Assembly: GCF_010747475.1 (NCBI RefSeq)
Contig: NZ_VSLZ01000004.1
Coordinates: forward strand, 310,001 to 374,000
Length of the DNA: 64,000 nt
Direction of reading: 5' to 3'
Source of the DNA: Halorussus sp. MSC15.2
Lineage (GTDB): Archaea; Halobacteriota; Halobacteria; Halobacteriales; Haladaptataceae
Part shown: piece by piece, positions 27,673 through 64,000 of the stretch
Position numbering within the stretch: position 1 is the stretch's first letter
Layout: each line of letters starts with the position of its first letter
Program-made: the position numbers and the translations under genes
Notes under the pieces: generated by a model
What the model was told of the DNA's origin: nothing
What the model saw: the letters and a program-made list of their open reading frames with translations, nothing else
The model's database searches: none

Positions 27673-28913
27673 TCAGTCCGAGTCGGTGGCGCGGTCGGGC
27701 CGCGAGTGAATCGGTCCCTCGGTGTCGGTCAATCGCCCGCCGGTTCGACCGTTCGAGGCGGCCAGCACCTCGGCGACGACCGAGAGCGCGATTTGGGAGG
27801 GTTCGCCGCCGCCCAAGTCGAGACCGACGGGCGTCGAGATTCGGTCCAACTCGTCGTCAGAGAGTTCGACGCCCTCGTCGGCCAGCGCCTCGCGCATCTG
27901 GTCGAACGCTTGCGCGGCCCCATCACCCCGACGTAGGGAACCCCGCAGTCGAGGAGCGCGTCGAGCGCCAGTCGGTCGTCCACGAAGTTGTGGCTCATCA
28001 GCACGGCGTAGGTGTCGGCCGGGCGAGAGACCGCGTCCGCGACGTCCGGCGGCCGTGCGGCGACGACCTCGTGGGCCGCCGGGAACCGCTCGCCGTCGGC
28101 CCGCGCGCCGCGCGAGGTGGCGACCGTCACCCGGAACCCGGCGTCGCGCGCGAGGCGGGCGACCGGCCGCACGTCGCCGCCGTGACCGAAGACCAGCAGT
28201 TCCGGGACCGGTTCGAGACCGTCCACGAACACCGCCGCGGTCCCGCGCTCGGTCTCGACGGTCACGGTGTCGGAGCGACCCGCCGCGGCGAACGCGGCGG
28301 CGCGCTCGCGGACCGCCGCGAGCAGGTCGTCCGGGAGCGGCGGGCGGGGGTCCGTAGACGCCGCCGAACCGTCTTCGCCGACGAGCGCCCGCGCGCCGAC
28401 CGGGACGGTCCCGTCGCCGCCGGAGACCGGGTGGTCGCCGCCGACGACCGTGAGCAGGGCCGCGTGCGTCTCGCCGGACTGCGAGTCCGACGACGTTCGA
28501 GGGGCCTCGCGTCCCTCACTGCCCGTCTCGACGCGGTTCAGCACGGGCCGAAAGCTCTCGTCTGCGGGTTCGACCAGCACGTCGATGACCCCGTTACATC
28601 CCAGACCGAAACTCCACGTGTCGTCCTCGCCCGTGAGGTCGAACGTCTCGCAGACCGGACCGTCCGCGAGCGCGCGCTCCGCGAGGTCCGCGACCGGGCC
28701 GTCGAGGCATCCGGCGGTGATGGCCCCGACCGCTCGCTCGTCGGCGAGGACGCGCTTCGCGCCGGGGCGGCGGTAGGCCGACCCCTCGACCGAGACGACG
28801 GTCGCCACGGCGGCACGGGGGCCGGTGTCGCCACCGTCACTCGCCTCGATAGCGTCCCGGAGGGCCGCGCGGACCGACAGTGTGCTCGCGTCCCACGCGT
28901 CCGTCTCGTCCAT
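27673..28913 (-). pseudogene. xdhC: XdhC/CoxI-family protein gene, broken by a one-base frameshift
   Basis: Two adjoining frames together encode one XdhC/CoxI protein of about 413 residues. The first frame holds the N-terminal domain (VATVVSVEGSAYRRPGAKRV; AITAGCLDGPVADLAERAL; DTWSFGLGCNGVIDVLVEP) and the Rossmann domain (LLVFGHGGDVRPVARLA; MSHNFVDDRLALDALL; GVPYVGVMGPRKR). The second frame resumes with FDQMREALADEG and ends RISTPVGLDLGGGEPSQIAL. A single missing base near 27904-27910 accounts for the shift. The family inserts the sulfurated molybdenum cofactor into xanthine or CO dehydrogenase. No molybdoenzyme gene is beside it. It may be a true pseudogene or a sequence error. Confidence 0.85.
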
Positions 28914-50424: not shown

Positions 50425-51689
50425 ATGGCAGACAAACCACATCAGAATCTGGCCATCATCGGCCACGTAGACCACGGAAAATCGACGCTCGTGGGACGAC
50501 TCCTCTTCGAGACGGGGAGCGTGCCCGAACACGTCATCGAACAGCACAAGGAGGAGGCCGAGGAGAAGGGCAAGGGCGGGTTCGAGTTCGCCTACGTGAT
50601 GGACAACCTCGCCGAGGAGCGCGAGCGCGGCGTCACCATCGACATCGCCCATCAGGAGTTCGAGACCGACGAGTACTACTTCACCATCGTGGACACGCCG
50701 GGCCACCGCGACTTCGTGAAGAACATGATTACCGGGGCGAGTCAGGCCGACAACGCCGTCCTCGTCGTCGCCGCCGACGACGGCGTCGCGCCCCAGACGC
50801 AGGAACACGTCTTCCTCGCGCGGACACTGGGCATCAACGAACTCATCGTCGGCGTCAACAAGATGGACCGGGTGGACTACGAGGAGAACCGCTACAAGGA
50901 GGTCGTCGCCGAGGTGCAGGACCTCCTGAATCAAGTCCGGTTCAACACCGAGGACGCCAGCTTCATTCCCATCTCCGCGCTGGAGGGCGACAACGTCGTC
51001 GAGCGCAGCGGGAACATGGAGTGGTACGACGGCGAACTCGTGCTGGAGGCGCTCAACGACCTCCAAGAGCCTGAGCCGCCGACCGACGCACCCCTCCGAC
51101 TCCCGATTCAGGACGTCTACACGATTTCGGGCATCGGGACGGTCCCGGTCGGACGCGTCGAGACGGGCATGCTCAACACCGGGGACAACGTGTCGTTCCA
51201 GCCTCCGACGTGGGCGGCGAGGTCAAGACCATCGAGATGCACCACGAGGAGGTGCCCGAGGCGGGACCCGGCGACAACGTCGGGTTCAACGTCCGCGGCA
51301 TCGGGAAGGACGACATCCACCGCGGCGACGTCTGCGGCCCGGCCGACGACCCGCCGAGCGTGGCCGAGACGTTCACCGCGCAAATCGTCGTGATGCAGCA
51401 CCCGAGCGTCATTACCGACGGCTACACGCCGGTCTTCCACGCTCACACCGCGCAGGTCGCCTGCACGCTGGAGTCCATCGACCAGAAGATAGACGCCTCC
51501 AGCGGCGAGGTCGAGGAGGAGGACCCCGACTTCATCCAGTCCGGTGACGCCGCGGTCATCACGGTCCGGCCCCAGAAGCCGCTGAGCATCGAACCCTCGT
51601 CGGAGATTCCGGAACTCGGGAGCTTCGCCATCCGGGACATGGGACAGACCATCGCGGCCGGACGCGTGCTGGAAGTCACCGAGCGCTGA
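50425..51689 (+). pseudogene. tuf: Elongation factor 1-alpha (aEF1A) gene, interrupted by a one-base frameshift
   Basis: Two frames jointly encode one protein of about 421 residues, the exact family length. Frame 1: G1 GHVDHGKST, switch [15 protein letters not shown]3 [10 protein letters not shown]4 VNKMD, then domain 2 up to DNVSFQP. Frame 2 resumes [17 protein letters not shown] and runs to GRVLEVTER, including [16 protein letters not shown] single base is missing near 51203-51206 (CAGCC then TCCGAC expected with one more base). aEF1A delivers aminoacyl-tRNA to the ribosome and is normally essential, so a sequencing error is more likely than decay, unless an intact copy exists elsewhere. 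The usual neighbour rpsJ is not present. Confidence 0.9.
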
Positions 51690-61424: not shown

Positions 61425-61608
61425 CCGCAGTTCGTGGTCGGGTCTTCGTGGGCTATTCCACGTCTTCGGTCTCTATCACACGCCTTCACTGTTTCAGTTC
61501 TCTCGTCTTCGGTTTCAGTTTTCTTCCTGCCCCGATACTCCCGATTCGCTGTTGGGTGTTATCCTCGAACTCGCACGACGTTCTCGCACGAAGTTTCGCC
61601 GACGTTCG

Positions 61609-61628
61609 ACCCCATCGTTTCCGCTGTC
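61609..61628 (-). repeat. ORB 1
   Basis: Matches the window ORB pattern on the minus strand: ACAGCGGAAAC, three variable bases, then GGGGT. On the plus strand it reads ACCCC-ATC-GTTTCCGCTGTC. Confidence 0.85.
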
Positions 61629-61644
61629 TATCGCGGTCACCACG

Positions 61645-61664
61645 ACCCCGCTGTTTCCGCTGTC
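61645..61664 (-). repeat. ORB 2
   Basis: ACCCC-GCT-GTTTCCGCTGTC on the plus strand, complete match to the ORB core and G-string in minus orientation, 16 bp after ORB 1. Confidence 0.85.
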
Positions 61665-61707
61665 TTCCGACGGTTCTCGTCACTCCGTCCGATTTCCGGT
61701 CGGCGGA

Positions 61708-61727
61708 ACACCGTAGTTTCCGCTGTT
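61708..61727 (-). repeat. ORB 3
   Basis: ACACC-GTA-GTTTCCGCTGTT on the plus strand: the core is intact and one G of the G-string is changed. Confidence 0.75.
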
Positions 61728-61752
61728 TTCGACTCGGGTAACGGCGCTCCCA

Positions 61753-61772
61753 ACACCAGTATTTCCGCTGTT
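61753..61772 (-). repeat. ORB 4
   Basis: ACACC-AGT-ATTTCCGCTGTT on the plus strand: core with one change at the first base and one change in the G-string. Confidence 0.65.
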
Positions 61773-61797
61773 ATGGCGGTAACCGAGTCTCACTGCA

Positions 61798-61817
61798 ACC
61801 CCACCGTTTCCGCTGTC
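61798..61817 (-). repeat. ORB 5
   Basis: ACCCC-ACC-GTTTCCGCTGTC on the plus strand, a complete match in minus orientation. Confidence 0.85.
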
Positions 61818-61930
61818 TTTCTCTCCGAGTCCGGCGAGTCGAGGGTCGGAGACTGTAATCGGATAGAATCGCAGTTGCTCGAACGGAATCAGGGTCGTGT
61901 TACCGAAAAAACAACGCACGGTTGACGGTA

Positions 61931-61950
61931 GACAGCGGAAACTACGGGGT
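61931..61950 (+). repeat. ORB 6
   Basis: GACAGCGGAAAC-TAC-GGGGT on the plus strand, in the opposite orientation to ORBs 1-5, after a 113-bp spacer. Confidence 0.85.
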
Positions 61951-61974
61951 TGATTCGCAGGGAGGTCGGGAGTA

Positions 61975-61994
61975 GACAGCGGAAACAGTGGGGT
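61975..61994 (+). repeat. ORB 7
   Basis: GACAGCGGAAAC-AGT-GGGGT on the plus strand, 44 bp from ORB 6 start to start, same orientation as ORB 6. Confidence 0.85.
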
Positions 61995-62044
61995 CGCCGC
62001 CGACGAGAGAAGACGACGGAATAGCAAATGCGGGAGGAAGAGAG

Positions 62045-63287
62045 TCAGTTCTCCGCGTCCTCGAACGTCGTCTGATAGTAGGGGCGGATGCTCTCGTGGA
62101 CACCCGCGAACTCGATGGTGTCTTCGAGTGCAGTGACCACCAACTGGAGGTCCTGTTTCAAGGCGTGTTTTCGGTACTTCCCGCCGGACATGCCCTCGTT
62201 CTTCTCCGTCGAAGAGATGACCCCGAGCATGGCGAGGTCCGCGAGGTGGTCGCGCATTCGGCGACTCGTCAAGGGTTCAGTACCGACGTGGTTACACAAC
62301 TGTTCGTACCGAGGCCGGATGTCGCGTGAACGGGCGGGCGTCTCTTCCTCGGCTTCGAGCGACGTGAGCGCGTAGAGGACGAGGCGGGCGTGTTCTGTGA
62401 GGTCGGCCACGCCCTCCATGATTCGGTCGCGTTCGAGTTTCTCGCGGGCCTCTTGGACGTGGTCGTCTGTGACCTGCTCGACGGCCTCCTTACGAGCGAG
62501 GTCCCCCGCTTCGAGGAGGAGGTCGAGAGCCTGCCGAGCGTCTCCGGCGTCCTGCGCGCCGTACGCCGCACAGAGCGGAATCACGTCCTCGGCGAGCGCG
62601 TCGTCGTGGAACGCGACCTGTTCGCGTTGGCTGAGGACTTTCTGGAGTTCTGTGGCGTCGTAAGGGGGGGAACGAGACTTCCTTCTCGCAGAGCGACGAC
62701 CGAACCTTCGCCGAGAGCGAGTCGCGGAACGAGAGGTCGTTAGAGATACCCACGAGACCGATTTTGGCGTGTTCGAGGTAGCCGTTGCTGCGGGCGCGCG
62801 GAATCTGGTAGAGGATGGAGTTGTCGTTGATGTGGTCCACCTCGTCGAGAACCACGATGACTGTACCGCCGAGTTTGTCGAGTTCCTCCCAGAGGAAACT
62901 GTAGACCTGCGCTTGGGGATAGCCAGTGTTACTAATCTGCTCGGAGGGGTCGCGGAGCGTGTTGACCAGACGGACGGCGACCTGATAACTGGAGTTGAGA
63001 CCGTCGCAGTTGATTTCGATGACGTTGAGCGAGATATCGTCGTACTTGGCGGCGTCGTCCTGCAGTCGGTTCAGGAGAAAGCGAGTGGCCGCCGTCTTTC
63101 CAACCCCGCTCTTTCCGTAGAGGAAGATGTTGGAAGGGGCCTCGCCGTTGATGATAGGCTGGAGTGCGGCGTGGTACTCCTCCAGTTCCTCGTCTCGTCC
63201 CACGAGGTTGTCCGGGGTGTACTCCTCGAGCAGAGCGTCCCGATTCTTGTAGAGGGAGTTGTCCCGGTCGAAGCTAAACGATGACAT
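62045..63287 (-). pseudogene. orc1: Origin recognition protein Orc1/Cdc6, interrupted by a frameshift in a 7-G run
   Basis: Two frames jointly encode an initiator of about 413 residues. Frame 1: Walker A at 58-65 (GKSGVGKT), Walker B at about 143-151 (IVVLDEVDH), sensor-1-like GLVGISNDLSFRDSL and SSLCEKEVSFPP. Frame 2 then continues with VIPLCAAYGAQDAGDARQAL (sensor 2) and the winged helix (TSRRMRDHLADLAMLGVISS). The shift is explained by one extra G in the run at 62664-62670 (6 Gs would keep frame). The protein binds ORBs and loads MCM. A TATA box CTTTATATCC (63312-63321, minus strand) is about 28 bp before the ATG. Confidence 0.88.
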
Positions 63288-63311
63288 GCACGATGCTTGA
63301 ACGGATGGGGA

Positions 63312-63321
63312 TATAAAGTGT
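63312..63321 (-). promoter_or_regulatory. TATA box of orc1
   Basis: CTTTATATCC on the minus strand, about 25-34 bp before the ATG of orc1, which suits a leaderless transcript. Confidence 0.7.
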
Positions 63322-63334
63322 CGTGGTTAGCGGC

Positions 63335-63346
63335 GTGTCCGCTGTT
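63335..63346 (-). repeat. Degenerate ORB-core-like element
   Basis: GTGTCCGCTGTT on the plus strand matches the ORB core GTTTCCGCTGTT with one change; no GGGGT G-string is attached. It sits between the orc1 TATA box and the palindrome. Confidence 0.4.
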
Positions 63347-63355
63347 TCTTCTGTC

Positions 63356-63375
63356 CCGGACATATTTATGTCCGG
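63356..63375. promoter_or_regulatory. Perfect 20-bp palindrome at the orc1 promoter
   Basis: CCGGACATA-TT-TATGTCCGG: two 9-bp arms separated by 2 bp. It is about 35 bp upstream of the orc1 TATA box and between ORB-like elements. It could be an operator for a dimeric regulator of orc1, or a cruciform at the origin. Confidence 0.6.
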
Positions 63376-63388
63376 ATGCAATGGCGGG

Positions 63389-63408
63389 TATCCGGCGTTT
63401 CCGTTGTC
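63389..63408 (-). repeat. Degenerate ORB
   Basis: The core GTTTCCGTTGTC has one change and the G-string side (TATCC) is poor. Confidence 0.45.
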
Positions 63409-63431
63409 CCGATTGACTTAAACACACACCC

Positions 63432-63451
63432 ACCCCATCGTTTCCGGAGCT
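63432..63451 (-). repeat. ORB 8 with extended G-string
   Basis: On the plus strand ACCCC-ATC-GTTTCCGGAGCT, preceded by CACACACACCC, so the minus strand reads GGGGT followed by GGGTGTGTG. The last four core bases differ from the consensus. It marks the left side of the AT-rich core. Confidence 0.7.
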
Positions 63452-63479
63452 ATCGGCAGGATAAGTGTGGGGTGTCACG

Positions 63480-63660
63480 TTGCTTCTAAATGAGGGGAAA
63501 GATTTATATAGGAACGTGGAAAACCATATCCGTAGTACAAATAAGCAAAATAGACTAAACGCCTCCTAGCTGTTGGAGTATACTTTTACTTAGAGAAACC
63601 GCTAAAGAACGCACGTTAGAACCGCTCGATAGTTTAACTAGATACTCGACAACTTCTGAC
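63480..63660. other. AT-rich candidate DNA unwinding element
   Basis: About 180 bp with marked A+T enrichment compared with the rest of the window, including GATTTATATAGG, AAATAAGCAAAATAGAC and GTTTAACTAGATAC. It lies between ORBs of opposite orientation, as expected for the place where the origin melts. Confidence 0.7.
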
Positions 63661-63825
63661 GATGTCCGAAACACTCTGCGGCCGAGCGCTCGGTATCGGT
63701 ATTTCGCGTTCTCTGTTCTGCGTTTCTCTTCGAACCACCTTCTCTCTCGAAATTGACGCTCTCTGCTCGGGTTCTATCACCACCCTCACCGTCTCGATTC
63801 TCTCCGTCCCCCTCTCGTCCACCGA

Positions 63826-63845
63826 AACAGCGGAAACGATGGGGT
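63826..63845 (+). repeat. ORB 9 with extended G-string
   Basis: AACAGCGGAAAC-GAT-GGGGT followed by GGGTGTCC; plus orientation, pointing away from the AT-rich core. Confidence 0.85.
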
Positions 63846-63893
63846 GGGTGTCCCCCCTCTCCCTCGACACACCCCCTCCGACGCACTCTCGAC

Positions 63894-63913
63894 AACAACG
63901 GAAACAGTGGGGT
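63894..63913 (+). repeat. ORB 10 with extended G-string
   Basis: AACAACGGAAAC-AGT-GGGGT followed by GGGTGTCC; 68 bp after ORB 9, same orientation, one core base changed. Confidence 0.82.
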
Positions 63914-64000
63914 GGGTGTCCCTCCGTTCGCTCGACCCGCGCTGACGCCGATGAAACCCCGACAGGGGTCGAACGGACCATCGAAGTACGCTCGGACGAT

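What the first reader, a model, noticed from the sequence alone, without database searches (positions are those of the whole stretch)
61425..64000. Probable chromosomal replication origin: orc1 with ORB clusters on both sides
At least ten 20-bp repeats of the form ACAGCGGAAAC-NNN-GGGGT occur in this 2.6 kb. Five minus-oriented and two plus-oriented copies lie downstream of orc1, and minus- and plus-oriented copies flank an AT-rich core upstream. Inverted ORBs around an AT-rich element next to orc1/cdc6 is the established plan of haloarchaeal origins. Unusual is the strong second cluster (seven boxes) behind the gene.
Basis: partly seen in the sequence, partly recalled or inferred. Interest (0 to 1): 0.85.

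Follow-up and report, generated by a model that had tools for sequence, protein, structure and literature searches.

The report
Megaplasmid replication origin of Halorussus
This is the replication start site of a roughly 400-kb second DNA circle in a salt-loving archaeon. Its initiator protein appears to have a second, far-away set of binding sites around a tiny zinc-protein gene, so control of replication may involve more than the start site.

Summary
The repeats are real and are origin recognition boxes (ORBs). Ten lie within 3 mismatches of ACAGCGGAAACNNNGGGGT (0.75 expected by chance), seven behind orc1 and three in front; three more lie just past the window end. The locus is an origin, but of a megaplasmid, not the chromosome. 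It lies on a 405-kb contig matching the Halorussus aquaticus plasmid. Orthologous Orc proteins (93-100% identical) are encoded on complete 303-558-kb plasmids. Cumulative GC skew peaks inside the upstream AT-rich core here, and within 360 bp upstream of orc in two of three relatives tested. The downstream cluster is not new: Haloarcula hispanica oriC2 has one, shown genetically to restrain initiation, and it is conserved here. What looks new lies outside the window. Across 16 Halorussus genomes, of 179 exact box matches 146 are at orc, 30 bracket a 46-aa zinc-ribbon gene far around the circle, and 3 are elsewhere. All boxes at that gene share one orientation. They are absent from a Halorussus that keeps the gene but lacks this Orc. 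I infer a remote initiator-binding site, for titration or for regulating the small protein. The orc gene here carries a one-base frameshift, most likely a sequencing error.

The parts
62045..63287 (-). orc1/cdc6 initiator gene, read in two frames: AAA+ part 62670-63287, lid and winged-helix part 62045-62664
   Evidence: NCBIfam TIGR02928 orc1/cdc6 family hits both pieces; Pfam Cdc6_lid and Cdc6_C on the second piece; 93-100% identical over residues 1-206 to intact orthologues
62664..62670 (.). 7-G run (C7 on the coding strand) where the reading frame shifts by one base; probable sequencing error
   Evidence: Relatives are open across this point; 3 of 40 genes compared in this stretch are split by single-base shifts relative to H. 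aquaticus; 59 synonymous against 1 non-synonymous codon differences over both halves
61609..61994 (.). Downstream ORB cluster: five minus and two plus boxes in the intergenic region behind orc1
   Evidence: boxes behind orc in all 15 loci 92-100% identical to this Orc
63336..63358 (-). Conserved box-like element (ACAGAAGAAACAGCGGAC) just upstream of the orc1 promoter; TATA-like box at 63310-63318
   Evidence: nearly invariant in nine aligned orthologous loci; TATA assignment by eye
63389..63407 (-). Weak inner ORB (4 mismatches)
63432..63450 (-). Origin-proximal ORB with extended G-string (GGAAACGATGGGGTGGGTGT); the most conserved stretch of the origin
   Evidence: identical in nine aligned orthologous loci including Halomicrococcus
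63501..63660 (.). AT-rich core, probable unwinding element, containing a conserved 56-bp segment at 63501-63556; cumulative GC-skew maximum at 63519
63827..63845 (+). Outer ORB, exact match; inverted relative to 63432
63895..63913 (+). Outer ORB; three more plus-oriented boxes follow past the window end at equivalents of 64096, 64203, 64322

Best explanation
This is the replication origin and initiator gene of a megaplasmid (secondary replicon) of a Halorussus species. The Orc1/Cdc6 protein binds inverted ORBs around the AT-rich core at 63501-63660, upstream of its own gene; the core melts and replication starts there in both directions. The seven-box cluster behind the gene most likely restrains initiation by titrating Orc, as oriC2D does for Cdc6E in Haloarcula hispanica. 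The same Orc has a second, remote set of boxes around a 46-aa zinc-ribbon gene on the same replicon. These probably act as an extra initiator sink and/or let Orc control that gene. Shown by computation: box identity, conservation, skew peak, plasmid location, the two-locus distribution of boxes, and their absence where the Orc is absent. Inferred: Orc binding, melting, titration, and any role of the remote site.
For: Boxes far above chance. Box 61976-61994 is identical to the core of a published haloarchaeal ORB-like element, TAACAGCGGAAACAGTGGGGTGGGGGGGT, from H. lacusprofundi Hla_3512 and H. walsbyi HQ2959A (PMC3528665). Cumulative GC skew maximum at 373,519 of the contig (window 63,519); in G006 238 bp and in G016 359 bp upstream of the orc ATG. 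The skew range exceeds all 500 block shuffles in each of four replicons. The core and flanking ORB are conserved in nine aligned orthologous loci. Orthologues on complete plasmids; 99% of a 24.9-kb window stretch matches the H. aquaticus plasmid at 93.7% identity. Two Halorussus genomes without this Orc (G001, G010) have no exact box anywhere. Known negative role of a downstream ORB cluster in H. hispanica (PMC3936714).
Against: No replication or binding data. In Halomicrococcus the skew peak lies 18.5 kb from orc. Circularity of the 405-kb contig is not shown. The orc gene as assembled is frameshifted. Titration is transferred by analogy from another haloarchaeon.
Confidence: 0.86

Rival explanations
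1. It is a chromosomal origin.
For: Related Orc genes occur on what is labelled a chromosome in Haladaptatus pallidirubidus, and on a 1.4-Mb 'chromosome 2' in H. halobius.
Against: Near-identical orthologues are encoded on complete 303-558-kb plasmids of Halorussus, Halomicrococcus and Haladaptatus; the contig matches the H. aquaticus plasmid and has no other Orc; other contigs carry their own Orc genes.
Confidence: 0.03
2. The downstream cluster (61609-61994) is itself an origin, or a second origin, because its minus and plus boxes are also inverted around a spacer.
For: Minus boxes, a 115-bp spacer and plus boxes; in the Halorussus loci scanned the cluster has the same two-sided orientation. 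Some haloarchaeal orc genes have ORBs only downstream (PMC3528665).
Against: The spacer is only 46% AT against 62% in the upstream core; skew peaks fall on the upstream side in three replicons; Haladaptatus and Halomicrococcus downstream clusters have one orientation only; the H. hispanica oriC2D region alone had no ARS activity (PMC3936714).
Confidence: 0.08
3. The downstream and remote boxes serve mainly transcription: Orc acts as a regulator of its own gene and of the 46-aa zinc-ribbon gene, and titration is a side effect.
For: Boxes bracket the small gene in 15 of 15 Halorussus genomes examined, in one orientation. Orc proteins can be regulators: Sulfolobus Orc1-2 is a global DNA-damage regulator (PMC9738581). 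Haloarchaeal zinc micro-proteins can regulate genes (Brz, PMC2253796).
Against: No expression data. Box number (1-7) and spacing vary widely, and a box usually sits after the stop codon, unlike a typical promoter operator.
Confidence: 0.35
4. The orc gene is a true pseudogene and this is a dead origin copy.
For: A single-base frameshift splits the protein between the AAA+ and lid regions.
Against: It is at a 7-base homopolymer; two other genes of 40 compared, including a tuf copy, are also split; both halves are under strong purifying selection; no other copy of this Orc exists in the assembly, yet the replicon persists.
Confidence: 0.07

Closest known systems
oriC2-cdc6E with oriC2D of Haloarcula hispanica (PMC3936714)
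   Same: Origin upstream of the Orc/Cdc6 gene, plus a dense ORB cluster directly downstream (11 ORBs in 722 bp there; 7 in about 390 bp here)
   Different: There it is on the main chromosome, here on a megaplasmid; whether the two Orc proteins belong to one family was not tested; no remote ORB cluster is reported in the papers searched
Origin II ORB element of Halorubrum lacusprofundi megaplasmid (Hla_3512) and Haloquadratum walsbyi (HQ2959A), PMC3528665
   Same: Core box ACAGCGGAAACAGTGGGGT is identical to one window box
   Different: That paper describes two different ORB types beside one gene; here one box type serves both sides
datA of Escherichia coli (DnaA titration) and remote initiator sites such as RctB sites of Vibrio cholerae
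   Same: A cluster of initiator boxes away from the origin, proposed to tune initiation
   Different: Different initiator and domain of life; the remote site here brackets a small zinc-ribbon gene; function untested; comparison partly from general knowledge
Orc1-2 of Saccharolobus islandicus (PMC9738581)
   Same: An Orc-family protein with binding sites outside origins
   Different: Orc1-2 is a non-initiator transcription regulator; this Orc sits beside its own origin

Membership tests
Archaeal orc1/cdc6-associated replication origin | Adjacent Orc1/Cdc6 gene with AAA+ and winged-helix domains | tested here: met
   TIGR02928, AAA_16, Cdc6_lid, Cdc6_C, in two frames; nearest solved chains 2QBY and 2V1U
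Archaeal orc1/cdc6-associated replication origin | Inverted ORBs with G-string flanking an AT-rich element | tested here: met
Archaeal orc1/cdc6-associated replication origin | Compositional skew switch at the locus | tested here: met
   Maximum at window 63519; repeated in G006 and G016, not exactly in G018
Archaeal orc1/cdc6-associated replication origin | Autonomous replication or marker-frequency peak | not testable with these tools
   Needs experiment or raw reads
Chromosomal origin (oriC1) | Located on the main chromosome | tested here: not met
   Contig and orthologues are plasmid
oriC2D-type negative control region | ORB-rich intergenic region directly downstream of the orc gene | tested here: met
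   Seven boxes; downstream boxes in all 15 close orthologous loci
oriC2D-type negative control region | No ARS activity alone; lowers copy of the origin plasmid | not testable with these tools
   Shown for H. hispanica only (PMC3936714)
Haloarcula oriC2/Cdc6E origin family | Orc at least 80% identical to Cdc6E | not tested
   Cdc6E sequence was not obtained; among plasmid records, relatives outside Haladaptataceae are at most about 71% identical

The most novel reading that the evidence does not exclude
The initiator of a conserved haloarchaeal megaplasmid has two main target loci on its replicon: the origin and a remote box cluster bracketing a 46-aa zinc-ribbon gene, 26-46% of the circle away. 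The remote site is a dedicated replication-control element, an archaeal counterpart of datA or crtS-type sites, possibly working through the small protein.
Probability: 0.4. Interest if true: 0.75.

Novelty: new variant of a known kind. Interest (0 to 1): 0.56.

Why it matters
How archaea hold several replicons at stable copy number is open. Here the initiator, its box and its near and far targets can be read from sequence in 16 related genomes, with a natural control that lacks the initiator and shows no boxes at the remote gene. That makes remote control of an archaeal origin directly testable by deleting one intergenic region. If true, bacterial-style initiator sinks evolved for an ORC-type initiator too.

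Tried and rejected
Rejected as remote sites: the box pairs 315 bp apart in Haladaptatus and Halomicrococcus, which lie inside a conserved HpcH/HpaI-aldolase-like reading frame with constant spacing (the aldolase label is by eye), and the G011 contig C17 cluster, which lies beside the gene that follows orc and is a fragment of the orc locus. The boxes as operators of the neighbouring MBL-fold nuclease gene only: the boxes persist in G005, G006, G008, G009 and G011, where that gene was not found at the remote locus, and in G015, where it is broken by a stop codon. A true duplication of orc in H. aquaticus: the record looks like an untrimmed circular overlap. Two paper searches failed on punctuation; one found no paper on Halorussus or Haladaptatus origins.

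Full report
Observation. Ten copies of ACAGCGGAAACNNNGGGGT (up to 3 mismatches) lie in 61609-63913, against 0.75 expected and at most 4 in 100 shuffles. Seven are behind orc1 (five minus, two plus) and three in front; a weaker minus box is at 63389, and three plus boxes lie just past the window end. On the whole 405-kb contig there are 16 copies with at most 2 mismatches; 30 letter-permuted control motifs give 0 to 2 each.

What it belongs to. The window is part of a 405,066-base contig (G000:C4) in a 4.4-Mb genome. One 24.9-kb stretch is 99% covered at 93.7% identity by the Halorussus aquaticus plasmid NZ_CP100401.1. The Orc is 93-100% identical (residues 1-206) to proteins of ten complete plasmids of Halorussus, Halomicrococcus and Haladaptatus, 303-558 kb as recorded, and it is the only Orc on this contig. 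So this is a conserved megaplasmid, not the chromosome. Two records differ: Haladaptatus pallidirubidus carries it on the chromosome, and H. halobius on a 1.4-Mb second chromosome.

Where replication starts. The cumulative GC skew of the contig has its maximum at 373,519 (window 63,519) and minimum at 206,639, 41% of the contig length apart; the range exceeds all 500 block shuffles. The same test on three relatives put the peak 238 bp upstream of the orc start in H. salilacus (G006), 359 bp upstream in G016, and 18.5 kb away in Halomicrococcus (G018). The window peak falls in the AT-rich core, whose 150-bp AT content of 62% is in the top 0.2% of the contig. An alignment of nine loci shows a conserved 56-bp segment in that core and an adjacent ORB with extended G-string identical in all nine. 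This favours the upstream side. The downstream cluster has a spacer of only 46% AT.

The downstream cluster. Boxes behind orc are present in all 15 loci whose Orc is 92-100% identical to this one: 4-8 boxes in Halorussus, 2-4 in Haladaptatus and Halomicrococcus (up to 3 mismatches). In Haloarcula hispanica an 11-ORB region behind cdc6E could not be deleted unless oriC2 was also removed, had no ARS activity alone, and lowered the copy of oriC2 plasmids; the authors propose titration of Cdc6E (PMC3936714). ORBs on both sides of orc are listed for other haloarchaea (PMC3528665). I therefore infer the same role here. One window box is identical to the core of a published ORB-like element (PMC3528665).

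A second, remote target. In this genome all 13 exact matches to ACAGCGGAAAYNNNGGKGT are on this contig: 10 at orc and 3 at C4:83477-83797. Over 16 Halorussus genomes with this Orc I count 179 exact matches: 146 at orc loci (including the doubled H. aquaticus record and a G011 fragment), 30 at the remote locus, 3 elsewhere (my tally). The reversed control pattern gives none. The remote boxes bracket a gene for a 46-aa protein with two CPxC-type motifs (C4:83633-83770), annotated as hypothetical in H. aquaticus (WP_163522741.1) and without a Pfam match over cut-off. In 15 of 15 Halorussus genomes with both this Orc and the gene, boxes (up to 3 mismatches) lie beside it, 1 to 7 per genome and 54 in all by my count, every one in the same orientation; in 14 of the 15 they are on both sides. 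G001 keeps the gene but lacks this Orc, has no box there, and has no exact match anywhere in the genome. Haladaptatus and Halomicrococcus relatives of the gene lack flanking boxes. The neighbouring nuclease gene is absent from the locus or broken in several genomes where the boxes remain. In eleven replicons the gene lies 26-46% of the replicon length from orc, never nearer than about 99 kb (computed from the positions; several contigs, including this one, are assumed circular). Two functions fit: an initiator sink like datA, or regulation of the small protein by Orc. Archaeal Orc proteins can act as regulators (PMC9738581) and haloarchaeal zinc micro-proteins can regulate genes (PMC2253796). 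I found no report of remote ORB clusters in haloarchaea in the library searched, which does not hold most subscription journals.

The frameshift. orc1 is split at a 7-G run (62664-62670); close orthologues are open there. Three of 40 genes compared with H. aquaticus in this stretch are split by single-base shifts, including a tuf copy. Between the two species the orc halves differ by 59 synonymous and 1 non-synonymous codons. A sequencing error is the simplest reading; a recent true mutation is not excluded.

Limits. No binding, copy-number or expression data exist here. The genomes are related, so counts are not independent events. Contig circularity is not shown. The Orc was not compared with Cdc6E, so membership of the oriC2 family is untested.

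Noticed in passing
G000:C4:83477-83797 (L034 5477-5797), outside the window: Remote ORB cluster bracketing a 46-aa zinc-ribbon gene, conserved in Halorussus and absent where this Orc is absent.
   Followed up: yes
window 50425-51686 and 27676-28913: A tuf (EF-1 alpha) copy and an XdhC/CoxI-family gene are each split by a one-base frameshift relative to H. aquaticus, suggesting indel errors in this assembly. An intact tuf is on contig C3.
   Followed up: partly
NZ_CP100401.1 (L240, L244-L247): The H. aquaticus plasmid record repeats about 46.7 kb at its two ends with small differences, so its true size is probably about 387 kb and its second orc copy an artefact of untrimmed circular overlap.
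   Followed up: partly
G027:C1:1746977-2405332 (Haladaptatus pallidirubidus chromosome): The orc locus and other box positions repeat at an exact offset of 551,849 bp: a tandem integrated megaplasmid or an assembly artefact.
   Followed up: no
L103, L105, L108, L110, L111, L102, L112: Palindrome-like ACACCGGAAACNCCGGTGT recurs in Haladaptatus and Halomicrococcus inside a conserved aldolase-like gene, exactly 315 bp from a second box-like sequence; a similar sequence sits 684-687 bp after the zinc-ribbon gene. Unexplained.
   Followed up: partly
L037 5926-6547 (G000:C10): Another Orc gene on an 85-kb contig has its own iterated box ACAGCGGCAACGAGGGGTG, one base off the window box in its core: a probable separate small-plasmid origin.
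   Followed up: no
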